Source: Tomocerus qinae
Lineage: Eukaryota; Arthropoda; Collembola; Entomobryomorpha; Tomoceridae
DNA: 64,000 nucleotides
Direction of reading: 5' to 3'
NCBI GenBank assembly: GCA_020055645.1
Contig: JAECZT010000034.1
Location: 1-64,000, forward strand
Every line of letters begins with the position of its first letter. Positions within the stretch are counted from its first letter, which is position 1. Shown here piece after piece: positions 1-52,075 of this stretch. Made by a program: the position numbers and the translations under genes. The notes under the pieces are model-generated. The model saw nothing but the letters and a program-made list of their open reading frames with translations, did no database searches and was not told where the DNA came from.

Positions 1-872
1 AATTAAATTCTGTTGTTCTAGTTCCCACTTAGAATTAATTAATTTTTGATCGAAACTATAAAACTGTTTGAAACTATTTTTATCAACTACCTACTAGCCC
101 TATTAACAACCTCCAAGCCTCATTTGGATTAAATGGCAAGGTTTAAGGGCCCACAAAATTGTTGTTTTTTGGTAAATTAAATTTTGTTGTTCTAGTTTCC
201 ACTTAGAATTAAATAATTTTTGATCGAAACTATAAACCTGTTTGAAACTATTTTTATCAACTACCTACTAGTCCTATTAACACCCTCCTAACCTCATTTG
301 GATTGAATGGCAAGGTTTAAGGGCCCATAAAATTGTTGGTGCTTGAAAAACGAAATTCTGTTGTTCTAGTTTCCACTTAGAATTAAATAATTTTTGATCG
401 AAACTATAAAACTGTTTGAAACTATTTTTATCAACTACCTACTAGTCCTATTAACATTCTCCAAGCCTCATTTGGATTGAATGGCAAGGTTTAAGGGCCC
501 ACAAAATTGTTGGTTCTTGATAAATTAAATTTTGTTGTTCAAGTTTCCACTTAGAATTAAATAACTTTTGATCGAAACTATAGAACTGGTTGAAACAATT
601 TTTATCAAATACCTACTAGTCCTATCAACCACCTTCAATCCTAATTTGGATTGAATGGCAAGGTTTAAGGGCCCATAAAATTGTTGGTGCTTGAAAAATG
701 AAATTCTGTTGTTCTAGTTTCCACTTAGAATTAAATAATTTTTGATCGAAACTATAAAACTGTTTGAAATTTTTTTTATCAAGCACCTACTAGTCCTTTT
801 AACAGCCTGCAAGCCTCATTTGTATTGAATGGCAAGGTTTAAGGGCCCACACAATTGTTGGTTCTTGATAAA

Positions 873-3800
873 TTAAATTCTGTTGTTCTAGTTCCCACTT
901 AGAATTAATTAATTTTTGATCGAAACTATAAAACTGTTTGAAACTATTTTTATCAACTACCTACTAGCCCTATTAACAACCTCCAAGCCTCATTTGGATT
1001 AAATGGCAAGGTTTAAGGGCCCACAAAATTGTTGTTTTTTGGTAAATTAAATTTTGTTGTTCTAGTTTCCACTTAGAATTAAATAACTTTTGATCGAAAC
1101 TATAAAACTGTTTGAAACTATTTTTATCAACTACTTCTAGTCCTATTAACATCCTCCAAGCCTCATTTGGATTGAATGGCAAGGTTTAAGGGCCCACAAA
1201 ATTGTTGTTTCTTGGTAAATTAAATTTTGTTGTTCTTGTTTCCACTTAGAATTAAATAACTTTTGATCGAAACTATAGAACTGGTTGAAATAATTTTTAT
1301 CAACTACCTACTAGTCCTATTAACAACCTCCAAGCCTCATTTGGATTGAATGGCAAGGTTTAAGGGCCCATAAAATTGTTGTTTCTTGGTAAATTAAATT
1401 TTTGTTGTTCTAGTTTCCACTTAGAATTAAATAACTTTTGATCGAAACTATAGAACTGGTTGAAAGAATTTTTATCAAATACCTACTAGTCCTATCTATG
1501 ACCTTCAATCCTAATTTGGATTGAATGGCAGGAGTTTAAGGGCCCATAAAATTGTTGGTGCTTGAAAAATGAAATTCTGTTGTTCAAGTTTCCACTTAGA
1601 ATTAAATAATTTTTGATGGAAACTATAAACCTGTTTGAAACTATTTTTATCAACTACTTACTAGTCCTATTAACACCCTCCTAACCTCATTTGGATTGAA
1701 TGGCAAGGTTTAAGGGCCCACAAAATTGTTGGTACTTTGAAAATGAAATTTTATAGTACTATTTTCTACTAAGACTTAAGTAAATTTTGATCGAAACTAT
1801 AGAATTGTTTGAAATTAATTTTATTAAGTACCTACTAGTCCTATCAATCACAATCCATCCTCATTTGGATTGAATGGCAAGGTTTAAGGGCCCACAAAAT
1901 TGTTGGTTCTTGATAAATTAAATTTTGTTGTTCAAGTTTCCACTTAGAATTAAATAACTTTTGATCGAAACTATAGAACTGGTTGAAACAATTTTTATCA
2001 AATACCTACTAGTCCTATCAACCACCTTTAATCCTAATTTGGATTGAATGGCAAGGTTTAAGGGCCCATAAAATTGTTGGTGCTTGAAAAATGAAATTCT
2101 GTTGTTCTAGTTTCCACTTAGAATTAAATAACTTTTGATCGAAACTATAAAACTGTTTGAAACTATTTTTATCAAATACCTACTAGTCCTATCAACCACC
2201 TTCAATCCTAATTTGGATTGAATGGCAAGGTTTAAGGGCCCATAAAATTGTTGGTGCTTGAAAAATGAAATTCTGTTGTTCTAGTTTCCACTTAGAATTA
2301 AATAACTTTTGATCGAAACTATAGAACTGGTTGAAATAATTTTTATCAACTACCTACTAGTCCTATTAACAACCTCCAAGCCTCATTTGGATTGAATGGC
2401 AAGGTTTAAGGGCCCACAAAATTGTTGTTTCTTGGTAAATTAAATTTTGTTGTTCTAGTTTCCACTTAGAATTAAATAACTTTTGATCGAAACTATAGAA
2501 CTGGTTGAAACAATTTTTATCAAATACCTACTAGTCCTATATATGACCTTCAATCCTAATTTGGATTGAATGGCAGGGTTTAAGGGCCCATAAAATTGTT
2601 GGTGCTTGAAAAATGAAATTCTGTTGTTCTAGTTTCCACTTAGAATTAAATAATTTTTAATCGAAACTATAAAACTGTTTGAAACTATTTTTATCAACTA
2701 CTTCTAGTCCTATTAACATCCTCCAAGCCTCATTTGGATTGAATGGCAAGGTTTAAGGGCCCACAAAATTGTTGTTTCTTGGTAAATTAAATTTTGTTGT
2801 TCTAGTTTCCACTTAGAATTAAATAACTTTTGATCGAAACTATAGAACTGGTTGAAACAATTTTTATCAACTACCTACTAGTCCTATTAACAACCTCCAA
2901 GCCTCATTTTGATTGAATGGCAAGGTTTAAGGGCCCACAAAATTGTTGTTTCTTGGTAAATTAAATTTTGTTGTTCTAGTTTCCACTTAGAATTAAATAA
3001 TTTTTGATCGAAACTATAAACCTGTTTGAAACTATTTTTATCAACTACCTACTAGTCCTATTAACACCCTCCTAACCTCATTTGGATTGAATGGCAAGGT
3101 TTAAGGGCCCACAAAATTGTTGGTTCTTGGTAAATTAAATTTTTGTTGTTCTAGTTTCCACTTAGAATTAAATAACTTTTGATCGAAACTATAGAACTGG
3201 TTGAAAGAATTTTTATCAAATACCTACTAGTCCTATCTATGACCTTCAATCCTAATTTGGATTGAATGGCAGGGTTTAAGGGCCCATAAAATTGTTGGTG
3301 CTTGAAAAATGAAATTCTGTTGTTCAAGTTTCCACTTAGAATTAAATAATTTTTGATCGAAACTATAAACCTGTTTGAAACTATTTTTATCAACTACTTA
3401 CTAGTCCTATTAACACCCTCCTAACCTCATTTGGATTGAATGGCAAGGTTTAAGGGCCCACAAAATTGTTGGTACTTTGAAAATGAAATTTTATAGTACT
3501 ATTTTCTACTAAGACTTAAGTAAATTTTGATCGAAACTATAGAATTGTTTGAAATTAATTTTATTAAGTACCTACTAGTCCTATCAATCACAATCCATCC
3601 TCATTTGGATTGAATGGCAAGGTTTAAGGGCCCACAAAATTGTTGGTTCTTGATAAATTAAATTTTGTTGTTCAAGTTTCCACTTAGAATTAAATAACTT
3701 TTGATCGAAACTATAGAACTGGTTGAAACAATTTTTATCAAATACCTACTAGTCCTATCAACCACCTTTAATCCTAATTTGGATTGAATGGCAAGGTTTA

Positions 3801-5915
3801 AGGGCCCATAAAATTGTTGGTGCTTGAAAAATGAAATTCTGTTGTTCTAGTTTCCACTTAGAATTAAATAACTTTTGATCGAAACTATAAAACTGTTTGA
3901 AACTATTTTTATCAAATACCTACTAGTCCTATCAACCACCTTCAATCCTAATTTGGATTGAATGGCAAGGTTTAAGGGCCCATAAAATTGTTGGTGCTTG
4001 AAAAATGAAATTCTGTTGTTCTAGTTTCCACTTAGAATTAAATAATTTTTGATCGAAACTATAAAACTGTTTGAAATTTTTTTATCAAGCACCTACTAGT
4101 CCTTTTAACAGCCTGCAAGCCTCATTTGGATTGAATGGCAAGGTTTAAGGGCCCACACAATTGTTGGTTCTTGATAAATTAAATTCTGTTGTTCTAGTTC
4201 CCACTTAGAATTAATTAATTTTTGATCGAAACTATAAAACTGTTTGAAACTATTTTTATCAACTACCTACTAGCCCTATTAACAACCTCCAAGCCTCATT
4301 TGGATTAAATGGCAAGGTTTAAGGGCCCACAAAATTGTTGTTTTTTGGTAAATTAAATTTTGTTGTTCTAGTTTCCACTTAGAATTAAATAACTTTTGAT
4401 CGAAACTATAAAACTGTTTGAAACTATTTTTATCAACTACTTCTAGTCCTATTAACATCCTCCAAGCCTCATTTGGATTGAATGGCAAGGTTTAAGGGCC
4501 CACAAAATTGTTGTTTCTTGGTAAATTAAATTTTGTTGTTCTAGTTTCCACTTAGAATTAAATAACTTTTGATCGAAACTATAGAACTGGTTGAAACAAT
4601 TTTTATCAACTACCTACTAGTCCTATTAACAACCTCCAAGCCTCATTTGGATTGAATGGCAAGGTTTAAGGGCCCATAAAATTGTTGTTTCTTGGTAAAT
4701 TAAATTTTGTTGTTCTAGTTTCCACTTAGAATTAAATAATTTTTGATCGAAACTATAAACCTGTTTGAAACTATTTTTATCAACTACCTACTAGTCCTAT
4801 TAACACCCTCCTAACCTCATTTGGATTGAATGGCAAGGTTTAAGGGCCCATAAAATTGTTGGTGCTTGAAAAATGAAATTCTGTTGTTCTAGTTTCCACT
4901 TAGAATTAAATAATTTTTGATCGAAACTATAAAACTGTTTGAAACTATTTTTATTAACTACCTACTAGTCCTATTAACATTCTCCAAGCCTCATTTGGAT
5001 TGAATGGCAAGGTTTAAGGGCCCACAAAATTGTTGGTTCTTGATAAATTAAATTTTGTTGTTCAAGTTTCCACTTAGAATTAAATAACTTTTGATCGAAA
5101 CTATAGAACTGGTTGAAACAATTTTTATCAAATACCTACTAGTCCTATCAACCACCTTCAATCCTAATTTGGATTGAATGGCAGGGTTTAAGGGCCCATA
5201 AAATTGTTGGTGCTTGAAAAATGAAATTCTGTTGTTCAAGTTTCCACTTAGAATTAAATAATTTTTGATCGAAACTATAAACCTGTTTGAAACTATTTTT
5301 ATCAACTACTTACTAGTCCTATTAACACCCTCCTAACCTCATTTGGATTGAATGGCAAGGTTTAAGGGCCCACAAAATTGTTGGTACTTTGAAAATGAAA
5401 TTTTATAGTACTATTTTCTACTAAGACTTAAGTAAATTTTGATCGAAACTATAGAATTGTTTGAAATTAATTTTATTAAGTACCTACTAGTCCTATCAAT
5501 CACAATCCATCCTCATTTGGATTGAATGGCAAGGTTTAAGGGCCCACAAAATTGTTGGTTCTTGATAAATTAAATTTTGTTGTTCAAGTTTCCACTTAGA
5601 ATTAAATAACTTTTGATCGAAACTATAGAACTGGTTGAAACAATTTTTATCAAATACCTACTAGTCCTATCAACCACCTTCAATCCTAATTTGGATTGAA
5701 TGGCAAGGTTTAAGGGCCCATAAAATTGTTGGTGCTTGAAAAATGAAATTCTGTTGTTCTAGTTTCCACTTAGAATTAAATAATTTTTGATCGAAACTAT
5801 AAAACTGTTTGAAATTTTTTTTATCAAGCACCTACTAGTCCTTTTAACAGCCTGCAAGCCTCATTTGTATTGAATGGCAAGGTTTAAGGGCCCACACAAT
5901 TGTTGGTTCTTGATA
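873..5915. repeat. Higher-order repeat copy 1 (29 monomers)
   Basis: A 5.04-kb unit bounded by monomers that begin aattaaattctg and contain the rare ctactagcccta variant. It matches the following unit monomer by monomer. Small differences are visible, such as a one-base insertion near 1527 (ggcaggagttt against ggcagggttt near 6573). Confidence 0.85.
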
Positions 5916-8900
5916 AATTAAATTCTGTTGTTCTAGTTCCCACTTAGAATTAATTAATTTTTGATCGAAACTATAAAACTGTTTGAAACTATTTTTATCA
6001 ACTACCTACTAGCCCTATTAACAACCTCCAAGCCTCATTTGGATTAAATGGCAAGGTTTAAGGGCCCACAAAATTGTTGTTTTTTGGTAAATTAAATTTT
6101 GTTGTTCTAGTTTCCACTTAGAATTAAATAACTTTTGATCGAAACTATAAAACTGTTTGAAACTATTTTTATCAACTACTTCTAGTCCTATTAACATCCT
6201 CCAAGCCTCATTTGGATTGAATGGCAAGGTTTAAGGGCCCACAAAATTGTTGTTTCTTGGTAAATTAAATTTTGTTGTTCTTGTTTCCACTTAGAATTAA
6301 ATAACTTTTGATCGAAACTATAGAACTGGTTGAAATAATTTTTATCAACTACCTACTAGTCCTATTAACAACCTCCAAGCCTCATTTGGATTGAATGGCA
6401 AGGTTTAAGGGCCCATAAAATTGTTGTTTCTTGGTAAATTAAATTTTTGTTGTTCTAGTTTCCACTTAGAATTAAATAACTTTTGATCGAAACTATAGAA
6501 CTGGTTGAAAGAATTTTTATCAAATACCTACTAGTCCTATCTATGACCTTCAATCCTAATTTGGATTGAATGGCAGGGTTTAAGGGCCCATAAAATTGTT
6601 GGTGCTTGAAAAATGAAATTCTGTTGTTCAAGTTTCCACTTAGAATTAAATAATTTTTGATGGAAACTATAAACCTGTTTGAAACTATTTTTATCAACTA
6701 CTTACTAGTCCTATTAACACCCTCCTAACCTCATTTGGATTGAATGGCAAGGTTTAAGGGCCCACAAAATTGTTGGTACTTTGAAAATGAAATTTTATAG
6801 TACTATTTTCTACTAAGACTTAAGTAAATTTTGATCGAAACTATAGAATTGTTTGAAATTAATTTTATTAAGTACCTACTAGTCCTATCAATCACAATCC
6901 ATCCTCATTTGGATTGAATGGCAAGGTTTAAGGGCCCACAAAATTGTTGGTTCTTGATAAATTAAATTTTGTTGTTCAAGTTTCCACTTAGAATTAAATA
7001 ACTTTTGATCGAAACTATAGAACTGGTTGAAACAATTTTTATCAAATACCTACTAGTCCTATCAACCACCTTTAATCCTAATTTGGATTGAATGGCAAGG
7101 TTTAAGGGCCCATAAAATTGTTGGTGCTTGAAAAATGAAATTCTGTTGTTCTAGTTTCCACTTAGAATTAAATAACTTTTGATCGAAACTATAAAACTGT
7201 TTGAAACTATTTTTATCAAATACCTACTAGTCCTATCAACCACCTTCAATCCTAATTTGGATTGAATGGCAAGGTTTAAGGGCCCATAAAATTGTTGGTG
7301 CTTGAAAAATGAAATTCTGTTGTTCTAGTTTCCACTTAGAATTAAATAACTTTTGATCGAAACTATAGAACTGGTTGAAATAATTTTTATCAACTACCTA
7401 CTAGTCCTATTAACAACCTCCAAGCCTCATTTGGATTGAATGGCAAGGTTTAAGGGCCCACAAAATTGTTGTTTCTTGGTAAATTAAATTTTGTTGTTCT
7501 AGTTTCCACTTAGAATTAAATAACTTTTGATCGAAACTATAGAACTGGTTGAAACAATTTTTATCAAATACCTACTAGTCCTATATATGACCTTCAATCC
7601 TAATTTGGATTGAATGGCAGGGTTTAAGGGCCCATAAAATTGTTGGTGCTTGAAAAATGAAATTCTGTTGTTCTAGTTTCCACTTAGAATTAAATAATTT
7701 TTAATCGAAACTATAAAACTGTTTGAAACTATTTTTATCAACTACTTCTAGTCCTATTAACATCCTCCAAGCCTCATTTGGATTGAATGGCAAGGTTTAA
7801 GGGCCCACAAAATTGTTGTTTCTTGGTAAATTAAATTTTGTTGTTCTAGTTTCCACTTAGAATTAAATAACTTTTGATCGAAACTATAGAACTGGTTGAA
7901 ACAATTTTTATCAACTACCTACTAGTCCTATTAACAACCTCCAAGCCTCATTTTGATTGAATGGCAAGGTTTAAGGGCCCACAAAATTGTTGTTTCTTGG
8001 TAAATTAAATTTTGTTGTTCTAGTTTCCACTTAGAATTAAATAATTTTTGATCGAAACTATAAACCTGTTTGAAACTATTTTTATCAACTACCTACTAGT
8101 CCTATTAACACCCTCTAACCTCATTTGGATTGAATGGCAAGGTTTAAGGGCCCACAAAATTGTTGGTTCTTGGTAAATTAAATTTTTGTTGTTCTAGTTT
8201 CCACTTAGAATTAAATAACTTTTGATCGAAACTATAGAACTGGTTGAAAGAATTTTTATCAAATACCTACTAGTCCTATCTATGACCTTCAATCCTAATT
8301 TGGATTGAATGGCAGGGTTTAAGGGCCCATAAAATTGTTGGTGCTTGAAAAATGAAATTCTGTTGTTCAAGTTTCCACTTAGAATTAAATAATTTTTGAT
8401 CGAAACTATAAACCTGTTTGAAACTATTTTTATCAACTACTTACTAGTCCTATTAACACCCTCCTAACCTCATTTGGATTGAATGGCAAGGTTTAAGGGC
8501 CCACAAAATTGTTGGTACTTTGAAAATGAAATTTTATAGTACTATTTTCTACTAAGACTTAAGTAAATTTTGATCGAAACTATAGAATTGTTTGAAATTA
8601 ATTTTATTAAGTACCTACTAGTCCTATCAATCACAATCCATCCTCATTTGGATTGAATGGCAAGGTTTAAGGGCCCACAAAATTGTTGGTTCTTGATAAA
8701 TTAAATTTTGTTGTTCAAGTTTCCACTTAGAATTAAATAACTTTTGATCGAAACTATAGAACTGGTTGAAACAATTTTTATCAAATACCTACTAGTCCTA
8801 TCAACCACCTTTAATCCTAATTTGGATTGAATGGCAAGGTTTAAGGGCCCATAAAATTGTTGGTGCTTGAAAAATGAAATTCTGTTGTTCTAGTTTCCAC

Positions 8901-11132
8901 TTAGAATTAAATAACTTTTGATCGAAACTATAAAACTGTTTGAAACTATTTTTATCAAATACCTACTAGTCCTATCAACCACCTTCAATCCTAATTTGGA
9001 TTGAATGGCAAGGTTTAAGGGCCCATAAAATTGTTGGTGCTTGAAAAATGAAATTCTGTTGTTCTAGTTTCCACTTAGAATTAAATAATTTTTGATCGAA
9101 ACTATAAAACTGTTTGAAATTTTTTTATCAAGCACCTACTAGTCCTTTTAACAGCCTGCAAGCCTCATTTGGATTGAATGGCAAGGTTTAAGGGCCCACA
9201 CAATTGTTGGTTCTTGATAAATTAAATTCTGTTGTTCTAGTTCCCACTTAGAATTAATTAATTTTTGATCGAAACTATAAAACTGTTTGAAACTATTTTT
9301 ATCAACTACCTACTAGCCCTATTAACAACCTCCAAGCCTCATTTGGATTAAATGGCAAGGTTTAAGGGCCCACAAAATTGTTGTTTTTTGGTAAATTAAA
9401 TTTTGTTGTTCTAGTTTCCACTTAGAATTAAATAACTTTTGATCGAAACTATAAAACTGTTTGAAACTATTTTTATCAACTACTTCTAGTCCTATTAACA
9501 TCCTCCAAGCCTCATTTGGATTGAATGGCAAGGTTTAAGGGCCCACAAAATTGTTGTTTCTTGGTAAATTAAATTTTGTTGTTCTAGTTTCCACTTAGAA
9601 TTAAATAACTTTTGATCGAAACTATAGAACTGGTTGAAACAATTTTTATCAACTACCTACTAGTCCTATTAACAACCTCCAAGCCTCATTTGGATTGAAT
9701 GGCAAGGTTTAAGGGCCCATAAAATTGTTGTTTCTTGGTAAATTAAATTTTGTTGTTCTAGTTTCCACTTAGAATTAAATAATTTTTGATCGAAACTATA
9801 AACCTGTTTGAAACTATTTTTATCAACTACCTACTAGTCCTATTAACACCCTCCTAACCTCATTTGGATTGAATGGCAAGGTTTAAGGGCCCATAAAATT
9901 GTTGGTGCTTGAAAAATGAAATTCTGTTGTTCTAGTTTCCACTTAGAATTAAATAATTTTTGATCGAAACTATAAAACTGTTTGAAACTATTTTTATTAA
10001 CTACCTACTAGTCCTATTAACATTCTCCAAGCCTCATTTGGATTGAATGGCAAGGTTTAAGGGCCCACAAAATTGTTGGTTCTTGATAAATTAAATTTTG
10101 TTGTTCAAGTTTCCACTTAGAATTAAATAACTTTTGATCGAAACTATAGAACTGGTTGAAACAATTTTTATCAAATACCTACTAGTCCTATCAACCACCT
10201 TCAATCCTAATTTGGATTGAATGGCAGGGTTTAAGGGCCCATAAAATTGTTGGTGCTTGAAAAATGAAATTCTGTTGTTCAAGTTTCCACTTAGAATTAA
10301 ATAATTTTTGATCGAAACTATAAACCTGTTTGAAACTATTTTTATCAACTACTTACTAGTCCTATTAACACCCTCCTAACCTCATTTGGATTGAATGGCA
10401 AGGTTTAAGGGCCCACAAAATTGTTGGTACTTTGAAAATGAAATTTTATAGTACTATTTTCTACTAAGACTTAAGTAAATTTTGATCGAAACTATAGAAT
10501 TGTTTGAAATTAATTTTATTAAGTACCTACTAGTCCTATCAATCACAATCCATCCTCATTTGGATTGAATGGCAAGGTTTAAGGGCCCACAAAATTGTTG
10601 GTTCTTGATAAATTAAATTTTGTTGTTCAAGTTTCCACTTAGAATTAAATAACTTTTGATCGAAACTATAGAACTGGTTGAAACAATTTTTATCAAATAC
10701 CTACTAGTCCTATCAACCACCTTTAATCCTAATTTGGATTGAATGGCAAGGTTTAAGGGCCCATAAAATTGTTGGTGCTTGAAAAATGAAATTCTGTTGT
10801 TCTAGTTTCCACTTAGAATTAAATAACTTTTGATCGAAACTATAAAACTGTTTGAAACTATTTTTATCAAATACCTACTAGTCCTATCAACCACCTTCAA
10901 TCCTAATTTGGATTGAATGGCAAGGTTTAAGGGCCCATAAAATTGTTGGTGCTTGAAAAATGAAATTCTGTTGTTCTAGTTTCCACTTAGAATTAAATAA
11001 TTTTTGATCGAAACTATAAAACTGTTTGAAATTTTTTTTATCAAGCACCTACTAGTCCTTTTAACAGCCTGCAAGCCTCATTTGGATTGAATGGCAAGGT
11101 TTAAGGGCCCACACAATTGTTGGTTCTTGATA
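5916..11132. repeat. Higher-order repeat copy 2 (about 30 monomers)
   Basis: Collinear with copy 1 at a constant offset of 5,043-5,045 bp up to about 10,430. The end of the unit then comes one monomer late (offset 5,217), so one extra monomer was gained or lost. The rare gatgga variant of the gatcga block occurs in both copies (near 1615 and 6658), supporting duplication of the whole block. Confidence 0.8.
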
Positions 11133-14100
11133 AATTAAATTCTGTTGTTCTAGTTCCCACTTAGAATTAATTAATTTTTGATCGAAACTATAAAACTGTT
11201 TGAAACTATTTTTATCAACTACCTACTAGCCCTATTAACAACCTCCAAGCCTCATTTGGATTAAATGGCAAGGTTTAAGGGCCCACAAAATTGTTGTTTT
11301 TTGGTAAATTAAATTTTGTTGTTCTAGTTTCCACTTAGAATTAAATAACTTTTGATCGAAACTATAAAACTGTTTGAAACTATTTTTATCAACTACTTCT
11401 AGTCCTATTAACATCCTCCAAGCCTCATTTGGATTGAATGGCAAGGTTTAAGGGCCCACAAAATTGTTGTTTCTTGGTAAATTAAATTTTGTTGTTCTAG
11501 TTTCCACTTAGAATTAAATAACTTTTGATCGAAACTATAGAACTGGTTGAAACAATTTTTATCAACTACCTACTAGTCCTATTAACAACCTCCAAGCCTC
11601 ATTTGGATTGAATGGCAAGGTTTAAGGGCCCATAAAATTGTTGTTTCTTGGTAAATTAAATTTTGTTGTTCTAGTTTCCACTTAGAATTAAATAATTTTT
11701 GATCGAAACTATAAACCTGTTTGAAACTATTTTTATCAACTACCTACTAGTCCTATTAACACCCTCCTAACCTCATTTGGATTGAATGGCAAGGTTTAAG
11801 GGCCCATAAAATTGTTGGTGCTTGAAAAATGAAATTCTGTTGTTCTAGTTTCCACTTAGAATTAAATAATTTTTGATCGAAACTATAAAACTGTTTGAAA
11901 CTATTTTTATTAACTACCTACTAGTCCTATTAACATTCTCCAAGCCTCATTTGGATTGAATGGCAAGGTTTAAGGGCCCACAAAATTGTTGGTTCTTGAT
12001 AAATTAAATTTTGTTGTTCAAGTTTCCACTTAGAATTAAATAACTTTTGATCGAAACTATAGAACTGGTTGAAACAATTTTTATCAAATACCTACTAGTC
12101 CTATCAACCACCTTCAATCCTAATTTGGATTGAATGGCAAGGTTTAAGGGCCCATAAAATTGTTGGTGCTTGAAAAATGAAATTCTGTTGTTCTAGTTTC
12201 CACTTAGAATTAAATAATTTTTGATCGAAACTATAAAACTGTTTGAAATTTTTTTTATCAAGCACCTACTAGTCCTTTTAACAGCCTGCAAGCCTCATTT
12301 GGATTGAATGGCAAGGTTTAAGGGCCCACACAATTGTTGGTTCTTGATAAATTAAATTCTGTTGTTCTAGTTCCCACTTAGAATTAATTAATTTTTGATC
12401 GAAACTATAAACCTGTTTGAAACTATTTTTATCAACTACCTACTAGCCCTATTAACAACCTCCAAGCCTCATTTGGATTAAATGGCAAGGTTTAAGGGCC
12501 CACAAAATTGTTGTTTTTTGGTAAATTAAATTTTGTTGTTCTAGTTTCCACTTAGAATTAAATAACTTTTGATCGAAACTATAGAACTGGTTGAAACTAT
12601 TTTTATCAACTACCTACTAGTCCTATTAACAGCCTCCAAGCCTCATTTGGATTGAATGGCAAGGTTTAAGGGCCCACAAAATTGTTGTTTCTTGGTAAAT
12701 TAAATTTTGTTGTTCTAGTTTCCACTTAGAATTAAATCACTTTTGATCGAAACTATAGAACTGGTTGAAACAATTTTTATCAACTACCTACTAGTCCTAT
12801 TAACAACCTCCAAGCCTCATTTGGATTGAATGGCAAGGTTTAAGGGCCCACAAAATTGTTGTTTCTTGGTAAATTAAATTTTGTTGTTCTAGTTTCCACT
12901 TAGAATTAAATAACTTTTGATCGAAACTATAGAACTGGTTGAAACAATTTTTATCAAATACCTACTAGTCCTATATATGACCTTCAATCCTAATTTGGAT
13001 TGAATGGCAGGGTTTAAGGGCCCATAAAATTGTTGGTGCTTGAAAAATGAAATTCTGTTGTTCTAGTTTCCACTTAGAATTAAATAATTTTTAATCGAAA
13101 CTATAAAACTGTTTGAAACTATTTTTATCAACTACTTCTAGTCCTATTAACATCCTCCAAGCCTCATTTGGATTGAATGGCAAGGTTTAAGGGCCCACAA
13201 AATTGTTGTTTCTTGGTAAATTAAATTTTGTTGTTCTAGTTTCCACTTAGAATTAAATAACTTTTGATCGAAACTATAGAACTGGTTGAAACAATTTTTA
13301 TCAACTACCTACTAGTCCTATTAACAACCTCCAAGCCTCATTTGGATTGAATGGCAAGGTTTAAGGGCCCACAAAATTGTTGTTTCTTGGTAAATTAAAT
13401 TTTGTTGTTCTAGTTTCCACTTAGAATTAAATAATTTTTGATCGAAACTATAAACCTGTTTGAAACTATTTTTATCAACTACCTACTAGTCCTATTAACA
13501 CCCTCCTAACCTCATTTGGATTGAATGGCAAGGTTTAAGGGCCCACAAAATTGTTGGTTCTTGGTAAATTAAATTTTTGTTGTTCTAGTTTCCACTTAGA
13601 ATTAAATAACTTTTGATCGAAACTATAGAACTGGTTGAAAGAATTTTTATCAAATACCTACTAGTCCTATCTATGACCTTCAATCCTAATTTGGATTGAA
13701 TGGCAGGGTTTAAGGGCCCATAAAATTGTTGGTGCTTGAAAAATGAAATTCTGTTGTTCTAGTTTCCACTTAGAATTAAATAATTTTTGATCGAAACTAT
13801 AAACCTGTTTGAAACTATTTTTATCAACTACTTACTAGTCCTATTAACACCCTCCTAACCTCATTTGGATTGAATGGCAAGGTTTAAGGGCCCACAAAAT
13901 TGTTGGTACTTTGAAAATGAAATTTTATAGTACTATTTTCTACTAAGACTTAAGTAAATTTTGATCGAAACTATAGAATTGTTTGAAATTAATTTTATTA
14001 AGTACCTACTAGTCCTATCAATCACAATCCATCCTCATTTGGATTGAATGGCAAGGTTTAAGGGCCCACAAAATTGTTGGTTCTTGATAAATTAAATTTT

Positions 14101-16160
14101 GTTGTTCAAGTTTCCACTTAGAATTAAATAACTTTTGATCGAAACTATAGAACTGGTTGAAACAATTTTTATCAAATACCTACTAGTCCTATCAACCACC
14201 TTTAATCCTAATTTGGATTGAATGGCAAGGTTTAAGGGCCCATAAAATTGTTGGTGCTTGAAAAATGAAATTCTGTTGTTCTAGTTTCCACTTAGAATTA
14301 AATAATTTTTGATCGAAACTATAAAACTGTTTGAAACTATTTTTATCAACTACCTACTCGTCCTATTAACATTCTCCAAGCCTCATTTGGATTGAATGGC
14401 AAGGTTTAAGGGCCCACAAAATTGTTGGTTCTTGGTAAATTAAATTTTGTTGTTCTAGTTTCCACTTAGAATTAAATAACTTTTGATCGAAACTATAGAA
14501 CTGGTTGAAAGAATTTTTATCAAATACCTACTAGTCCTATCTATGACCTTCAATCCTAATTTGGATTGAATGGCAGGGTTTAAGGGCCCATAAAATTGTT
14601 GGTGCTTGAAAAATGAAATTCTGTTGTTCAAGTTTCCACTTAGAATTAAATAATTTTTGATCGAAACTATAAACCTGTTTGAAACTATTTTTATCAACTA
14701 CTTACTAGTCCTATTAACACCCTCCTAACCTCATTTGGATTGAATGGCAAGGTTTAAGGGCCCACAAAATTGTTGGTACTTTGAAAATGAAATTTTATAG
14801 TACTATTTTCTACTAAGACTTAAGTAAATTTTGATCGAAACTATAGAATTGTTTGAAATTAATTTTATTAAGTACCTACTAGTCCTATCAATCACAATCC
14901 ATCCTCATTTGGATTGAATGGCAAGGTTTAAGGGCCCACAAAATTGTTGGTTCTTGATAAATTAAATTTTGTTGTTCAAGTTTCCACTTAGAATTAAATA
15001 ACTTTTGATCGAAACTATAGAACTGGTTGAAACAATTTTTATCAAATACCTACTAGTCCTATCAACCACCTTTAATCCTAATTTGGATTGAATGGCAAGG
15101 TTTAAGGGCCCATAAAATTGTTGGTGCTTGAAAAATGAAATTCTGTTGTTCTAGTTTCCACTTAGAATTAAATAATTTTTGATCGAAACTATAAAACTGT
15201 TTGAAACTATTTTTATCAAGCACCTACTAGTCCTTTTAACAGCCTGCAAGCCTCATTTGGATTGAATGGCAAGGTTTAAGGGCCCACAAAACTGTTGGTT
15301 CTTGGTAAATTAAATTTTGTTGTTCTAGTTTCCACTTAGAATTAAATAACTTTTGATCGAAACTATAGAACTGGTTGAAAGAATTTTTATCAAATACCTA
15401 CTAGTCCTATCTATGACCTTCAATCCTAATTTGGATTGAATGGCAGGGTTTAAGGGCCCATAAAATTGTTGGTGCTTGAAAAATGAAATTCTGTTTTTCA
15501 AGTTTCCACTTAGAATTAAATAATTTTTGATCGAAACTATAAACCTGTTTGAAACTATTTTTATCAACTACTTACTAGTCCTATTAACACCCTCCTAACC
15601 TCATTTGGATTGAATGGCAAGGTTTAAGGGCCCACAAAATTGTTGGTACTTTGAAAATGAAATTTTATAGTACTATTTTCTACTAAGACTTAAGTAAATT
15701 TTGATCGAAACTATAGAATTGTTTGAAATTAATTTTATTAAGTACCTACTAGTCCTATCAATCACAATCCATCCTCGTTTGGATTGAATGGCAAGGTTTA
15801 AGGGCCCACAAAATTGTTGGTTCTTGATAAATTAAATTTTGTTGTTCAAGTTTCCACTTAGAATTAAATAACTTTTGATCGAAACTATAGAACTGGTTGA
15901 AACAATTTTTATCAAATACCTACTAGTCCTATCAACCACCTTCAATCCTAATTTGGATTGAATGGCAAGGTTTAAGGGCCCATAAAATTGTTGGTGCTTG
16001 AAAAATGAAATTCTGTTGTTCTAGTTTCCACTTAGAATTAAATAACTTTTGATCGAAACTATAGAACTGGTTGAAACAATTTTTATCAACTACCTACTAG
16101 TCCTATTAACAACCTCCAAGCCTCATTTGGATTGAATGGCAAGGTTTAAGGGCCCACAAA
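11133..16160. repeat. Rearranged satellite segment, partial third higher-order copy
   Basis: The same 174-bp monomers, but the order no longer follows the 29-monomer pattern. A marker monomer expected near 11,818 is missing and the next one is at 13,905. At the right end the marker recurs every 870 bp (five monomers: 13905, 14775, 15645), so shorter local amplifications have occurred. Confidence 0.75.
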
Positions 16161-16274
16161 ATATTTGGTTATTGAAATATGAAATTCCGTTTTTTTAGTT
16201 TTGCTAATAATGAAACAGCAAATATATAAATAGCTTTTATCGAAGCTATAAAACGGTATGAAACTATTGTTAGA
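16161..16274. repeat. Degenerate terminal satellite monomer
   Basis: The last monomer loses similarity progressively. Traces such as atgaaattccg, tatcgaagctataaaacgg and tgaaactatt can still be aligned to the consensus, and the sequence then changes to the next array. This marks the edge of the 174-bp array. Confidence 0.7.
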
Positions 16275-17600
16275 AGCGTCCTTTACACTTGGAATAACGT
16301 TTGGAATTAGTTCTGAAATCTCCCTTATGCAGAAGCATTTTGGGATATGTTTTGGAAGCCACCAACGAATTGCTGCACCGTTTTGAAAATTGTGTTGTAA
16401 CTCTCCTCTACACTTGGAACATTGTTTGGATTTAATTCTGAAATCCCCCCTTATTTAGAATCGTTTTGATATTAGTAGTAGCATTTTGGTATATATTTTC
16501 GAAGCCTCTAACTTATGCCGCACCGTTTTGGAATTTGTGTTGGAAGCTTCCCCTACCCTTGGAATAACGTTTGGAATTAGTTCTGTAATCTCCCCTCACG
16601 TAAAAGTATTTTGGGTTATGTTTTTGAAGTCTCCTACATATGGTGCAACGTTTTGGGATTTGCGTTGGAAGCCTCCTTTACCCTTGGAACGACTTTTGGA
16701 ATTGGTTCTGAAATCCCCCCTCATGTGGTAGCATTTTATGACATGTTTTGGGAGTCTCCCACTTATGCTGCACCGTTTTGGAATTTGTGTTGGATGCCTC
16801 TTTGGAATTAGTTCTGAAATCCCCCCTCATGTAGTAGCATTTTGGGTTATGTTTTTGAGGTCTCCCACTTATGCTGCAACGTTTTGGAAATTGGCATTGA
16901 AAGCCTCCTTTACCCTTGGAACGACTTTTGGAATTAGGTCTGAAATTCCCCCTCATGGAGTAGGATTTTATGATATGTTTTGGAAGTCTCCCACTTATGC
17001 TGCATCGTTTTGGAATTTGTGTGGGATGCCTCCTCTACACTTGGAATAACGTTTGGAATTAGGTCTGAAATCCCCCCTCATGTAGAAGCATTTTGGTTTA
17101 TGTTTTTGAGGTCTCCCACTTATGCTGCACCGTTTTGGGATTTGTGTTGGATACCTCTTTGGAATTAGTTCTGAAATCCCCCCTCATGTAGTAGCATTTT
17201 GGATTATGTTTTTGAGGTCTCCCAATTATGCTGTAACGTTTTTGAAATTTTGTTGGAAGCCTCATGTACCCTTGGAACAACGTTTGGAATTAGTTCTGAA
17301 ATCCCCCCTTATGTTGAAGCGTTTTGGGATATGTTTTCGATGTCTCCCACTTATGCTGCACTGCTTTGGAAATAGCGTTGGCAGCCTCCTCTACGCTTGG
17401 AACAACTTTGGAATTAGTTCTGAAATTTCCCCTCATGTGGAAGCATTTTGGGGAATGTTTTGGAAGTCTCCCACTTATGCTGCACCACTTTGGAATTTGT
17501 GTTGGAAGCCTCCTGGAAGCCTCGTCTACCCTTGTTTGACCGTTTGTAATAGGTTCTGATATCCCCCCTCATGTTGTATTTTGTGTTGCCCATCTTTGGC
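16275..17600. repeat. Second tandem array, about 125-bp unit with about 359-bp higher-order period
   Basis: About eleven imperfect units containing ggaattagttctgaaatcc, cattttgggttatgtttt and tctcccacttatgctgc. The phase word ttctgaaatc recurs with intervals of about 104 to 146 bp. The segment near 16,788-16,880 (short unit with cctctttggaattag) recurs nearly unchanged near 17,143-17,237, which shows a three-unit block of about 359 bp. It has no similarity to the 174-bp satellite. Open frames on both strands here overlap one another and reflect the repeat only. Confidence 0.88.
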
Positions 17601-20640: not shown

Positions 20641-20661
20641 AGAATTGTAAACCATTTAACA

Positions 20662-22210
20662 TTATTTATTCAGACCCCAGATGCATAATCTGCCTAAACT
20701 TATGAGTAATGTACTGCAAACTGTAACGACAGTAAAACGTTTGAAATGATAGAAAGAGCCAACCTTAATCTGAATAGATACACAAGATCGATAAACAGAC
20801 ATTGCTCTCAGTCTCTCCTCTCTACTAGTGCCAATATCCATGTGTAAATAAAACTTTGCAAAGCCCTGTGACAATTCGAACACTCTCGCAGTCATTACAC
20901 AAAATAGCAACAGATAGATCATACAGATTATGCAGATTGGTACTAAAAGCGTATAAATCCAAACAGGTATCGATGGGTCTTTTAAAAATTTGATGCAAGT
21001 GAAGCCACTGCCGATAACGATTATAAGAAGCATGAATTTATGTAGCGGCTGGAATATTGTTGAACAGCATTCATTGTATTGATTGTGCAGGATTTGAATC
21101 GTCCTGTAGGAAGTAAGAAAATCGGATGGGCTACAAAGTTTTGCTTTCGCTCTAAATAAAAACAAACATCTAATATTGAAATCAATGTAAATAGCAAATG
21201 ATATGTAAAATCTCTAAAAATACCTGAGAATTCGTAAATAGGAACAACAACAATAAGTGTAACCGATGTGAAAAAGAAAGCTATATAAAAAGAAGATCCA
21301 GTCCCAAAATACAGTAATGGTTTCCAAAGTCACGAAAGCTAAAAGAACCCAAATGCTTGCGTCTTCAATCTTTTCATAAAATAGGGTATGAAAATAGTAA
21401 TGACGATTGGGATACACCAAGAAAAGAATGACACTTAGTGGAGTGTTTTAATAAAATCGTCGATACACATCCGATGAAAATCAATCTTAATTTCTTTTCA
21501 GACTCTAGATGAATTTCCCCATTGGCTGTAGAATTTTAAAAAAAACACTATTTTGTTATGAAAGCAGATACTTTTGGTTTCACACCTATTGGTTGAAGTA
21601 AGGCAGTGGTTGCACAAATACCTATCAATGTTATTGTTTTAATTGGGTTAGATTAGGTCATAGGTCCCTTGAAAGTGGATCTTGGCCCTGTGTATTTCAT
21701 GGCGCAATTTTTAAAATGTGCAACCACTGTCTTACTTCAACCCATTTATTATTTAGTGAAACTTTTAATATTAATAAAAACAATGGAAATTTAATCTATA
21801 AAACCTTGAAGAGTAGAAAGAAGTTGTATAAATTGATTGGCGCAGGATCGAATCTCATTTTTGTTCAAAAATGTGTTAATTTGAAGAACACTAATTCCTG
21901 CATAGCAAGCAGCAAAAATGAAATGCATAACTTGATGAAAAACTTCTCCTTTCACGTAACGAATCGAATTGTAGAATCGTATCAAGAGTACAGTAGCTTG
22001 GAAGACTTGAAATAGAAAAGTGAAATTGTAGAGATAAACTGAACACTTTGAAGATTTTCCAACCAAACGACGTTTTTTGCGATTCCATTTGTAAGGGATA
22101 CAGATTTGAGCTGAAATACAATCTAGCTGAGTGTTCAAATCAAATATTTTTGGTAACTGATCAAAAAATATCTGTAAAGCTTTTCTAAATTTACTAAAAA
22201 TTAATTCCAT
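20662..22210 (-). CDS. 7TM chemoreceptor-like protein, copy A (one frameshift)
   Basis: Three exons: 21805-22210, 21224-21525 and 20662-21151, all with GT-AG ends and phases 1 and 2, as in copies B and C. The product would be about 398 aa, the usual length of arthropod gustatory-receptor-like proteins. It has several long hydrophobic helices, a QFIQLL block at the end of exon 1, PNRHYYFHTLF in exon 2 and SYRTIQILHNQYNECC in exon 3. The classical TYhhhhhQF signature of insect receptors is not evident, so the family call is an inference. Exon 2 is one base longer than its counterpart in B: an extra base in the run at 21446-21449 breaks the frame. Exons 1 and 3 are open. A MITE (21591-21742) sits in intron 1. 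Either a recent pseudogene or a sequencing error. Confidence 0.55.
21591..21742. mobile_element. MITE family 1, copy 1 (152 bp)
   Basis: Terminal inverted repeats starting ggttgaagtaaggcagtgg and ending in the reverse complement, about 25 bp long. It lies in intron 1 of chemoreceptor copy A. Copies of the family also lie at 28206, 33588, 56974, 60206 and 61340. There is no coding capacity. I could not settle the target duplication. Confidence 0.85.
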
Positions 22211-28262: not shown

Positions 28263-28439
28263 CAAAAAGTTGATTCGGTCTTAGTAAGAAGTTTTAGAAT
28301 TATTTTTGACTATCTTTCAATGTTAATTCTCTACCTCTGGCCCACTAAAAGTAGAAACCGTGATAAGGTCAATTGGAATTAATATAAAACATCTTTGCAT
28401 CTGAATTACATTCTACTTAAATCGGAATACGTTAAAAAA

Positions 28440-28866
28440 TATCCCGTATTAGAAAATCTTCACTATTAAAAAAACTCCCGTTAGACAATCTCCCTATTAG
28501 AAAATCTCCCCGTTAAACAATCTCCCAATTAGAAAATCTCCCCTTTTGAAAAATCTCCCCGTTACGCATTCTCCCTATTAGAAAATCTCCCCGTTAAACA
28601 ATCTCCCCGTTAAACAATCTCCCTATTAGAAAATCTCCCTATTAGAAAATCTCCCTATTAGAAAATCTCCCCTATTAAAAAATCTCCCCGTTTGACAATC
28701 TCCCTATTAGAAAATCTACCCATTAAACAATCTCCCCATTAAACAATCTCCCTATTAAGAAATCTCCCCGTTAGACAATCCCCCTATTAGAAAATCTCCC
28801 CGTTATACAATCTACCTATTAGAAAACCTCCCCGTTAGTCAATCTCCCTATTAGAAAATCTCCCGG
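28440..28866. repeat. 20-bp minisatellite, about 21 copies
   Basis: Variants of aatctccccgttaaac and aatctccctattagaa follow each other with a period near 20 bp, in an alternating pattern of cccgttaaac and cctattagaa units. There are no unique spacers, so it is not a CRISPR array. Confidence 0.88.
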
Positions 28867-29380: not shown

Positions 29381-29935
29381 TAATTGGGATTTTAAAGCTT
29401 GAGAAATCAGAAGTAAATAATTGCGACGATCTTCTACTTTACAAAAATTGTAATTTAAAATTACACCCATAAAATAGACTTTTAATCCAAATTTGCTTTT
29501 CAGAATTGATATAGCACACCATAGGAAATTGTAATTTATTAGTTTTACTGCTTAAAATTGTTTTCCTTTCACCTAATAAAAATTTTTATTAGTGCTCATC
29601 CATGGAGGACTCTCAAAATCAAATGGGGTCCAAAAGTTTACCATCTTTCAAGATACAAGCTTTCTTTCAAGCTGGACCACAATTACATATAGGGAGCTAC
29701 TCCTCGTTGGGTAAACCGGGTTTATGAACTTGTAATGCATAACGCCGTGTTGGAAAGAGTGGAAAGATTTAAAATCCCATCTACGAAGACAATAATATGA
29801 TAAAAGAGGTAAAAGCTTTCTCATATTGGTGTATATATTTATTTGTTTTTAATTATTCATTGTTATAGTTATACAATATAGAATATCCAATAATACATAC
29901 ACACCGTTTTAAAAATAATCTTTACACGTTGTACA

Positions 29936-31327
29936 TTAATGTTTCAGTCCCCAAATACATATTTTACCCAGCCCAATTAATATTGTGCTAGAAACTGTAA
30001 CAACAGTGAAGCGTTTAAAATGATAGAAAGAGCCAACCTTGACTTGAATTGGCACACAAGATCGATAAACTGGCATAACTCTCAACCTGTCCTCTCTACT
30101 GGTGCCAATATCCAGATGTAAATAAAATTTAGCAAAACCCTGTGACAGTTCGAACACTCTCGCAGTCATTACACAAAAAGAGCAACAGATAGATCGTGCA
30201 GACTATGAAGAGTGGTACTAAAAATCCATAAATCCAAACGGGTATCGTTGGATCCTTCAAAAACTTGATGCAGGTGAAACCGCTACCAATGATGACTACC
30301 ATAAGCATTAATTTATGCAGCGGCTGGAAAATTCTGGCACAACACTCATTGTATTGGTTGTGCAGGATTTGAAGTGCCCTGTACGAAGTAAGGAAGTCGG
30401 ATGCGAGACAATGTTTTGCTTTCATCCTACAGGAAAAAAATATGCTATTAAAGTAAATTTAAATTCCAAATAAATCTTTAATCCTGAATTACCTGAGAAT
30501 TCTTAAATAGGAAGAGGCACAGTAAGTGTACGCGAAATGGAAAAGGGCGCTGTATAGAAATACGACCCAAGCCCAAAATATAGTAATGGTCTCCACTGTC
30601 CCAAAAGCCAAAAATATGTAAATATTTGTCTCTTCAATCTTTGGGAAAAATAGAGTATGAAAATAGTAATTGCGATTGGGAAACACCAAAAACATGAAGA
30701 CAGATAGTGGAGTATGTAACATAATTGTAATTACACATCCAACCAAAACCAATCTTAATTTCTTTTCAGACTGCATCCGAATTTCTCCGTTTTCTGTAAA
30801 AATATTTCAGGTTTGCAATGATAAGTCAATCTATTTCTTAAAAATTATAATTTTAATTATAGAAAATCAATTAAATGTAATAAAAACACAAATTATTGTG
30901 ATTTAAGACCTTGAAGAGGTAAGAAGAAGTTGGATGAACTGATTGGCGCAGAATAGAATCTCATGTTGATAAAAAAATGTGTTGATATGCACAACGGCAA
31001 TTCCTGAGTAACAAGCAGTCCACATAAAATGCATAACTTGATGAAAAACTTCTCCTTTCAGGTAGCGAATTGAATTGTAAAATCGTATAAGGAGTAAGCT
31101 CGATTGTAAAATGTGAAAGTAGAAGGTGAAATTGAAGAGATAAACTGAACACTTTGAAGATTTCCAATCACACGACGTGTTTGGCGATTCCATTTTGTAA
31201 GGAACACATGGTTGAGTAGAGAGCATATCCAATACTGTATTCTACTCAAAACATTTTGACAACTGATCAATTACTTTCTGAAAAAAATCTTGTAAAATTT
31301 ACTCAAAATTACTCTTAATTTAAGCAT
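29936..31327 (-). pseudogene. 7TM chemoreceptor-like copy B, multiply broken
   Basis: Same three-exon plan as copies A and C: 30910-31327, 30493-30793 (301 bp, the undamaged length) and 29936-30426, all splice sites kept. Exon 2 is open and reads VGCVITIMLHTPLSVFMFLV then PNRNYYFHTLFF. Exon 1 carries a TAG at 31242-31244 where A and C have leucine, and at least four indels relative to A and C (near 31,280, two flanking the KWNRQTRR segment near 31,165-31,195, and one near the exon end at about 30,920). Exon 3 has an extra base in the run at 30175-30179, splitting the segment around LLLFCVMTARVFEL. The nonsense change cannot be explained by a homopolymer error, so this copy is a true pseudogene. 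Confidence 0.75.
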
Positions 31328-32974
31328 TTTGTCAAATGTTACTTTTATTTGATTTTCAATCAGATTAAAAATGACTCACTGAATGTACTCAACTCTAAGA
31401 CAATATTTTGTAACTGAAAAAAATGATGTAGTTTTCCTTAGAGCTGCCACTTTTGAATGTGAATTGGGAAGCTGTAAAATATAATCCATTAATAAGGGTC
31501 GTAGTAGTTGTGTTTGTTGTTAGACTCGTAGTCTGTACTGTACACGTAGTCTTAACTGCTTTGCGTATTGATTAAGTTAGGTATACGTGCAAAAATTGTG
31601 GCTTGTTATATACGTGGCATTTCATTTACGTTCCTATAATATGATTTTTTATTAATGACAATGATTTTTTATTAATATGACGTGAGCAGGGCTTGTATAT
31701 CTTTACCTAATCAAAAAGCCGAATTGTGTATACTTCAGTTTACTTAACCCTCTAATACCTGGGGCTGACCATGAAATTTGGAGGTTCACACGCACATTCT
31801 GAATCGAGTGGTCGTCGAATCAAATTTATAGCATTTTTCAAAAATTCAACCGTTTTGGCCTAAATTTATCTTTCAATCTTTTAAAAATCGTAGGAATATT
31901 CAACGCATGATGACAATTAGTTCATTTGTACCTGTGGCCTTGGACCAAAATTTAATCTTAAAGTTGCGTAATTGGCTAATCCACGCAAAACGATCTCGAT
32001 TCAACAAAAATAGACTTTTTCTGGTGGATGCAACGTTTGAAAATTATTGTACATAGCTTGACTACAATTACATATTGGATATTTCTGTTCTTTGGGAATA
32101 CCAGGTATGTTAGGGTTAACTATTTGCTGAATATGAATGCGTGGGTTGGTTCCTGTGATGGAGAGATGTGGTTGTAATGCATGATTTAGGCCGCCTCGGA
32201 AAGAATTCCTTCTACGAAGACGATATGATAAAAAGTAAATGGCTTTCACCTATATTGGTTTATACGTACACAACTTAATATTATTACATATACATAAAGT
32301 TGTTTGCGTCACTACAAGAAGGTTAAAACCTTTACAAGAGTTTCAAAGCATGTATTTATGCATAATTTAGTGACCCATGCCAATGATAATTTATTAAAAG
32401 CAGGGATAACATAGAATACTGTCTAAAATGAGAATAAGTGACTATTTTTACCGATCCCAAGAACGAGCGACTAAATATTACATGTATAGCGTCACCTATG
32501 TCACATTTTAAACTTATTAAGACACAAGTGATGAAAAATTGCAAAGTAAATAAATATACCAAGGTTGGCTGTTTTGCTGCCCCTATTTCATTACTATTAC
32601 TGTTACCACTGTCAATAGCTACAAAGAAACGTGTAAAACATAATATATTAACCATGATGCTAAAGTTTTATGTAACGCTCAAACTCGTGAATACTGTCGA
32701 ACTTGATCTCATGACCGGCGCTAACTAAAATTGCCAAATAAAGACCCTATGACACATCTAAAATGAATTTCTTTGTTATTCAATGACTCACTTCAAGAAA
32801 TAATGCTACTAAATAATAAGAAAACAGCTTGCATTCGTATTACACTTTATTAAAATATTTTAAAATAATTTTAGTCATTATTACAAAACAATATAAATAT
32901 TCAATCGGGATATTAAAGTCGGTTTTGAAATAAAGTTAGGAATACATTAGTTACCCGATTGCTTAATTTCTACA
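31328..32974. repeat. Duplicated intergenic unit between copies B and C
   Basis: Contains the upstream block (31,610-31,765) of copy B and blocks shared with 23,300-23,700 and 29,750-29,840. A short downstream segment (32,285-32,370, gcgtcactacaa...) is shared with 35,880-35,960. No coding function. Short frames at 32,001-32,249 and 32,356-32,728 show nothing recognisable. Confidence 0.55.
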
Positions 32975-51329: not shown

Positions 51330-52075
51330 CTTAGTTTTGGTCCAGATGACAAAGACAGGCAGATGACCAATGACGAATGGCAGATGACCAATGAGCAGGC
51401 AGACAGCAGATGACCAATGACAGGCAGATGACCAATGACAGGCAATGACCAATGACAGGCAGATAACCAATGACCGGCAGGAAATGACCAACAGCCACTG
51501 ACGACAGCTACCACGGTGCAGTCGTAAGACACGATGAAACGTAGTTTTTTGGCTTGAGAAAATAAAACTGCCGCAAGAATCAAAAGTTGGTGCAAGGATG
51601 GATTGCACGAGAGCAGAGAAGAAATGAGACGGCAAGCAGAGTGCTTGTCTTCTCATCTCAGTCCAGCCAGCCAGCAGCCGCGAGTGAGTAGGGTAGTAGA
51701 AGGCAGAAGCACGGCAAGCAGGCATAAGCACTACATACACTGCTTATGCCTGGCTCCGCCAAGAGATGAGAAAGGCAAGCAGAGTGCTTGTCTTCCTCCT
51801 CATCTCGATCAATCAGCCAGCCAGCCGCGAAGTGAGTAGAGGTAGGGTATAGTAGAAGTCAAGCAGGCATAAGCACTACACTGCTTATGCCTGGCTCCTC
51901 CAAGGGTAAACCGTCTCACATTGTTTTTAGCAATGTGTTGCGACACCAGAGTACATTTTTGGTTGACGAAACGAACACACGAACGAACTTACATGGACTC
52001 TCTCTTTTCTATTATTCAATAGTGCATATAAGAGAGGAATTTATCATTAAATTACTTGTTGCACCATTTAATTGA
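51330..52075. repeat. Hairpin-rich repeat block, copy 1
   Basis: Starts with a short tandem repeat of agatgaccaatgacaggc, followed by caacagccactgacgacagc, ccgcaagaatcaaaagttgg, several hairpins (caagcaggcataagcactac with tgcttatgcctggctc; agcagagtgcttgtcttc), then gttgacgaaacgaacacacg. The same order occurs at 55,575-56,370. Open frames on both strands are repeat-derived. Confidence 0.85.

What the first reader, a model, noticed from the sequence alone, without database searches (positions are those of the whole stretch)
1..16160. 29-monomer (5.04-kb) higher-order repeat in a 174-bp satellite
A diverged marker monomer and several private point variants recur with spacings 10+11+8 monomers, then 10+11 again, so whole 29-monomer blocks were copied. 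Such multi-monomer higher-order structure at about 170 bp is best known from primate alpha satellite; in an arthropod it would be a noteworthy centromere candidate.
Basis: partly seen in the sequence, partly recalled or inferred. Interest (0 to 1): 0.72.

Follow-up and report, generated by a model that had tools for sequence, protein, structure and literature searches.

The report
Recently block-duplicated 174-bp satellite array
A stretch of repeated DNA built from about 17 variants of a 174-base unit has grown by copying whole blocks of units, including one 29-unit block copied once; this looks like a clean example of a well-known way in which such repeats grow, and nothing here shows a centromere or a new kind of structure.

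Summary
Window 1-16201 is a head-to-tail array of a 174-bp monomer (93.1 copies). Positions 466-5814 match 5511-10857 with 2 substitutions and 2 one-base indels. The marker spacing 10+11+8+10+11 is correct but continues 20+5+5. Both ends of the 29-monomer period lie inside the window, so it is one tandem duplication (two copies plus about 0.3 kb), beside an 11-monomer tandem copy and shorter shared blocks, not a repeatedly copied higher-order repeat (HOR). About 17 monomer types differ by 17.8 bases on average, copies of one type by 0.7, and several types are in-register mosaics. This fits an old monomer library plus recent unequal exchange. In a toy model, runs of 29 or more monomers arise in 31-67% of arrays when the mean event is 10-25 monomers, but in 2-4% when it is 2-5. 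HORs are already reported in beetles, Drosophila and 76 of 171 surveyed species (passages). A centromere role is untested. Reads and the rest of the genome were unavailable, so assembly error is not excluded.

The parts
1..16201 (+). Head-to-tail array of the 174-bp satellite (cut by the window's left end)
   Evidence: TRF period 174, 93.1 copies, 89% matches; 92 anchored monomers of 173-176 bp
16202..16282 (+). Degenerate last part-monomer, after which a different satellite begins
   Evidence: 16227-16272 matches the consensus at 87% over 47 columns, E 3e-10; gapped alignment to about 16282
466..5510 (+). First copy of the 29-monomer block (5,045 bp)
   Evidence: 466-5814 aligns to 5511-10857 with 2 one-base indels and 2 substitutions; 30-monomer run at lag 29
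5511..10553 (+). Second copy of the 29-monomer block (5,043 bp)
   Evidence: Against the first copy, within the unit: two one-base indels and no substitution
10554..10857 (+). Partial third repeat (304 bp); the 29-mer period ends here
   Evidence: 2 substitutions against 5511-5814, then dense mismatches from 5815/10858
8313..10224 (+). First copy of the 11-monomer tandem duplication (monomers 47-57; it lies partly inside the second 29-mer copy)
   Evidence: 1 difference in 11 monomers against monomers 58-68
10225..12137 (+). Second copy of the 11-monomer duplication (monomers 58-68)
   Evidence: As above; 11033-12000 identical to 9120-10087
13529..16139 (+). Three successive 5-monomer rounds (monomers 77-91): four constant types O, P, J, C and a changing fifth (B, D, L)
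   Evidence: Type string; the constant four differ by 0-1 base per monomer between neighbouring rounds, the fifth by 7 and 9
1704..1877 (+). First of nine copies of the diverged marker monomer, type J (others start at 3444, 5356, 6748, 8487, 10399, 13878, 14748, 15618)
   Evidence: 25-37 differences from the other type consensuses; eight of nine copies identical; positions

Best explanation
A non-coding satellite array in which an older set of about 17 diverged 174-bp monomers was recently expanded by in-register unequal exchange (unequal sister-chromatid crossing over, or template-switching repair between misaligned monomers). Each event copied a block of monomers in tandem: one copied 29 monomers, another 11, others fewer. 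Exchanges inside monomers had made mosaic types. No function is shown, and I think the structure is a by-product of recombination between near-identical repeats. Shown by sequence: the block copies, the edges of the 29-mer period inside the window, preserved register, near-zero divergence of the 29- and 11-monomer copies, and mosaic types. Inferred: the recombination pathway, the number and order of events (not counted), and the lack of function.
For: Register is kept: the 92 monomers are 173-176 bp. Divergence is split: 285 same-type pairs average 0.73 differences and 3,901 between-type pairs 17.8; types come from clustering, which builds in part of the contrast, but the raw histogram has 325 of 4,186 pairs at 0-4 differences, 13 at 5 and 3,848 at 6 or more. 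Copied blocks have different sizes: of 30 same-lag runs of four or more monomers (each differing by 4 or fewer), one is 30 long, two are 11, two 8, five 5 and twenty 4, at 23 different lags. Mosaic test: splitting each type into a prefix and a suffix parent saves 60 differences over 17 types, against a mean of 31.5 and a maximum of 40 in 40 column permutations; types F and G are exact two-parent mosaics. Random tandem duplication/deletion from 18 founders gives a same-lag run of 29 or more in 31%, 41% and 67% of 150 runs each at mean event lengths of 10, 15 and 25 monomers. Longest stop-free stretch 43 codons on +, 85 on -.
Against: No raw reads, second haplotype or rest of the genome could be examined. 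The simulation is a toy with chosen founder number, bias and lengths; at mean event lengths of 2 and 5 the run of 29 arises in only 2% and 4%. In its terms of strict type identity the observed longest run is 23, and 30 only if types I and P (4 differences apart) are merged. Long-event simulations also have fewer different neighbour pairs (medians 20-22) than the array (29, or 27 merged), so events of mixed length are needed. In the mosaic test types can be parents of each other, so it shows exchange but does not count events. Gene conversion could make some of the same copies.
Confidence: 0.8

Rival explanations
1. A genuine 29-mer higher-order repeat array, in the cascading sense (monomer types repeated within the unit), of which this window holds only the edge, possibly part of a centromere.
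For: The 29-mer holds 16 types in 29 monomers (15 in the second copy), like the cascading HORs defined in PMC11050224 (passages); the array runs off the window's left end; the copies are over 99.9% identical.
Against: The 29-mer period stops at 466 on the left and at 10857 on the right, both inside the window. Marker spacing after the two copies is 20, 5, 5. No CENP-B-like box above chance in the consensus.
Confidence: 0.08
2. An assembly artefact: the second 29-mer copy (and perhaps the 11-mer copy) is a false duplication made by the assembler or by joining two haplotypes.
For: Within the unit the two copies differ by two one-base indels and no substitution, as long-read errors or allelic differences might; the 11-monomer copies differ by one base.
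Against: The sequence outside the copies differs on both sides; shared blocks of many other sizes and lags occur and are somewhat more diverged, so block copying went on here in any case; the partial third repeat carries two substitutions. Assemblers more often collapse such arrays (general knowledge).
Confidence: 0.1
3. Rolling-circle amplification of an excised circle followed by reinsertion.
For: Near-identity of copies and sudden expansion are compatible with it.
Against: It should give a regular run of one unit length; here shared blocks occur at 23 different lags.
Confidence: 0.02

Closest known systems
Primate alpha-satellite cascading HORs (e.g. 15mer and 20mer of human chromosome 15, PMC11050224, passages)
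   Same: About 170-bp monomers; a long unit in which monomer types recur; sub-periods inside the unit (here 8, 10, 11; there 4, 7, 11)
   Different: There 429 and 164 copies of the unit; here two copies and a fraction. Sequence relation to alpha satellite was not tested.
HORs of beetle satellites, Tribolium castaneum (Vlahovic et al. 2017, not held, seen only as a reference; described in passages of PMC5615363 and PMC7598501)
   Same: Arthropod satellites with multi-monomer units reported
   Different: TCAST monomers are about 360 bp and abundant at centromeres; its HORs mix subfamilies with extraneous sequence. Abundance here is unknown and the array seen is uninterrupted.
Drosophila ananassae-subgroup pericentromeric satellites with HORs (PMC11917152, passages)
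   Same: Arthropod complex satellites (monomers 99-411 bp) forming HORs
   Different: Stretches up to 2 Mb; here 16 kb is seen, next to gene pieces
Monomeric (unordered) satellite arrays with local segmental duplications (general knowledge)
   Same: Block copies of varying size, no single period running through the array
   Different: I see no difference of substance: this is where the array fits best

Membership tests
Satellite DNA | Long head-to-tail array of a fixed-length monomer | tested here: met
   93.1 copies of 174 bp
Satellite DNA | Non-coding | tested here: met
   Longest stop-free stretch 43 codons on +, 85 on -
Satellite DNA | High copy number in the genome | not tested
   The genome search gave no answer in 13 attempts
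Higher-order repeat | Multimer copies much more alike than the monomers inside them | tested here: met
   Over 99.9% identity between the two 29-mers against a mean of 16.7 differences per monomer pair
Higher-order repeat | The same multimer itself tandemly repeated through the array | tested here: not met
   Two copies plus about 304 bp, both ends inside the window; marker spacing elsewhere 20, 5, 5
Higher-order repeat | Tandem Repeats Finder reports a multimer with higher score than the monomer (test used in PMC4053949, passages) | tested here: inconclusive
   No multimer of 174 bp reported up to 2000 bp; 5,043 bp lies beyond that limit
Cascading HOR | Monomer types repeated within one unit | tested here: met
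   16 types at threshold 3 in the first 29-mer, 15 in the second
Centromeric satellite | CENH3 occupancy or centromeric location | not testable with these tools
   No ChIP, FISH or chromosome position available
Centromeric satellite | CENP-B box (optional feature; motif typed from recall) | tested here: not met
   Consensus: best site has 3 mismatches, and 383 of 500 shuffled consensuses do as well or better. The 92 monomers singly: best site 2 mismatches in 1, 3 in 70, 4 in 21

The most novel reading that the evidence does not exclude
The array is the edge of an arthropod centromere whose core carries very long cascading HOR units (29 monomers or more), so that primate-like HOR evolution can be watched at its first step, from one block duplication towards a homogenised array.
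Probability: 0.06. Interest if true: 0.55.

Novelty: new member of a known kind. Interest (0 to 1): 0.22.

Why it matters
It is a readable snapshot of how satellite arrays grow: an old set of monomer variants, mosaic monomers from in-register exchange, then near-identical copies of a 29-monomer and an 11-monomer block. It also warns that a strong long-period peak can come from one duplication and need not mean an HOR array. If more copies were found to the left, it would bear on how HORs start.

Tried and rejected
Regular 29-mer HOR: rejected for this window because the period is bounded on both sides. Chance: rejected by monomer-order shuffles. Coding repeat: 174 is divisible by 3, but no frame in the array is open for more than 85 codons. 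CENP-B box: not above chance in the consensus. AA/TT ten-base periodicity: no clear signal in the autocorrelation. Dispersed copies of the monomer in the rest of the window: apart from the degenerate monomer at the edge, the best BLAST match had E 0.16. Rfam families at gathering score and tRNAs: none in the window. An exact 25-position monomer pattern had 0 matches in the bacterial/archaeal contigs and 0 in the viral contigs; neither collection is one of animal genomes, so this says little. A run of 13 invariant bases in the monomer was not pursued: it overlaps the anchor used to cut monomers, and I judged it only slightly longer than expected (rough estimate, no call). Naive base-by-base autocorrelation was misleading because of one-base indels and was replaced by monomer alignment.

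Literature: eight searches of the held library; I saw listings only, and no listed title names this satellite. The search for 'cascading' + 'higher order repeat' + 'insect' gave 0 papers. Seen by passages only: PMC4053949, PMC11917152, PMC13194869, PMC11050224, PMC11157248 (one reference entry), PMC5615363, PMC7598501. PMC5737470 is not held.

Full report
What is there. Window 1-16201 is a single-orientation array of a 174-bp, 31% GC monomer (TRF: 93.1 copies, 89% matches; GC of the consensus). I cut it into 92 monomers at a shared anchor; lengths are 173-176 bp. The first 136 bases, before the first anchor, and the last part-monomer were not used in the monomer counts. A degenerate part-monomer continues to about 16272-16282, after which a different satellite begins. 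The left end is cut by the window.

Is the 29-monomer period real? Yes. After alignment of the 92 monomers, pairs 29 apart differ on average by 9.1 bases against 16.7 for all pairs, the lowest mean of the 89 lags listed, and 30 of 63 differ by 2 or fewer. The longest run of monomers matching at one lag (4 or fewer differences each) is 30: monomers 2-31 against 31-60, 6 differences in all. In 300 shuffles of monomer order the longest run was 6 and the lowest mean at any lag from 1 to 62 was 11.8.

How far does it go? Base-level alignment puts the match at 466-5814 against 5511-10857, with two one-base indels (near 1533 and 3071) and two substitutions (5681 and 5784). Left of 466 and right of 5814/10857 mismatches become dense at once. 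So there are two copies (5,045 and 5,043 bp) and 304 bp of a third. Positions 5511-5814 are identical to 466-769 but differ twice from the third partial repeat, which would place the exchange before 5681 if the two differences are older than the duplication (inference). This is what one in-register unequal exchange leaves, not a homogenised HOR array.

The rest of the array. With types defined at an average distance of 3 there are 17 types. Monomers 47-57 and 58-68 form an equally fresh tandem copy, with one difference in 11 monomers. Thirty same-lag runs of four or more monomers were found in all: one of 30, two of 11, two of 8, five of 5 and twenty of 4, at 23 lags; many are somewhat more diverged (98.9-99.9% identity). 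The last 15 monomers are three rounds of four constant types plus a changing fifth. Same-type pairs (285) average 0.73 differences and between-type pairs (3,901) 17.8. Because types come from clustering this contrast is partly built in; the raw histogram is nevertheless split, with 325 of 4,186 pairs at 0-4, 13 at 5 and 3,848 at 6 or more. The array looks like an old library of variants expanded recently.

Mosaic monomers. Several types are better explained as a prefix of one type and a suffix of another: F and G exactly, and A, L, M, O and P with one difference left. The total saving over 17 types is 60 differences; 40 column permutations gave a mean of 31.5 and a maximum of 40. Types can serve as parents of each other, so this shows exchange within monomers but does not count events. 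J is not a mosaic of the others (23 of 25 differences remain).

Mechanism and how ordinary it is. In a toy model of random tandem duplication and deletion from 18 founders, without mutation, a same-lag run of 29 or more arose in 2%, 4%, 31%, 41% and 67% of 150 runs each for mean event lengths of 2, 5, 10, 15 and 25 monomers. By the model's strict type identity the observed run is 23, and 30 if the close types I and P are merged. The long-event models have fewer distinct neighbour pairs (medians 20-22) than the array (29, or 27 merged). So long events are needed for the block, short ones for the scrambling, but no special process. I take unequal in-register exchange as most likely (0.8).

Function. 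Nothing points to one. The array has no long reading frame and no CENP-B-like box above chance in its consensus. Gene pieces begin about 2 kb beyond it: a protein-kinase fragment at 18.4-19.1 kb, a 7tm_7 chemoreceptor match at 21.8-22.2 kb (22.6 bits, below the cutoff of 26.6) with similar DNA near 31 and 34 kb, and pieces of an ABC transporter of the MRP (ABCC) kind at 38-44 kb. The corresponding pieces near 31 and 34 kb gave no 7tm_7 match. The array thus borders genes; this neither proves nor excludes a pericentromeric position. The host is probably an arthropod on that one weak match; a springtail is my impression from recall only.

Known context. HOR structure was found in 76 of 171 species with Sanger data (PMC4053949, passages), in beetles and other insects (PMC5615363, passages) and in the Drosophila ananassae subgroup (PMC11917152, passages). 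Units in which monomer types recur are called cascading HORs in human chromosome 15 (PMC11050224, passages). The Folsomia candida springtail genome paper reports centromeres found by repeat software, with no monomer in the passages seen (PMC13194869).

Limits. The own-genome search did not complete in 13 attempts, so copy number, the array to the left and the species are unknown, and no reads were available. Assembly duplication stays at about 0.1.

Noticed in passing
window 16252-17567: A second satellite directly beside the array: subunits of about 125, 125 and 106 bp form a 357-bp unit (2.9 copies, 83% matches, score 1442, against 65% and score 586 at 125 bp), so it looks like a small three-part higher-order repeat. 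Apart from the edge piece it shows no BLAST similarity to the 174-bp monomer better than E 0.2.
   Followed up: partly
window 20659-22209, 29933-31315, 32972-34672: Three diverged tandem copies (62-81% identical over the pieces listed) of a gene that by eye has several membrane segments; one piece matches 7tm_7 chemosensory receptor below its cutoff, the other pieces scanned do not.
   Followed up: partly
window 53430-53932 and 54174-54844: Two short arrays of one 166-bp repeat (3.0 and 4.0 copies, 91% and 93% matches); no meaningful BLAST match to the 174-bp consensus.
   Followed up: no
window 28430-28864: Minisatellite of a 16-bp unit (26.9 copies, 75% matches) with a longer period of 129 bp (3.4 copies, 83%), a small higher-order pattern of its own.
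   Followed up: no
window 51619-51949 and 55970-56295: Two related segments about 4.35 kb apart, 98% identical over 108 bp (51842-51949 and 56188-56295), suggesting a recent local duplication.
   Followed up: no
174-bp monomer, alignment columns roughly 138-155: Variation within the monomer looks crowded into a short stretch while 109 of 176 columns are invariant in all 92 copies; not tested against chance.
   Followed up: no
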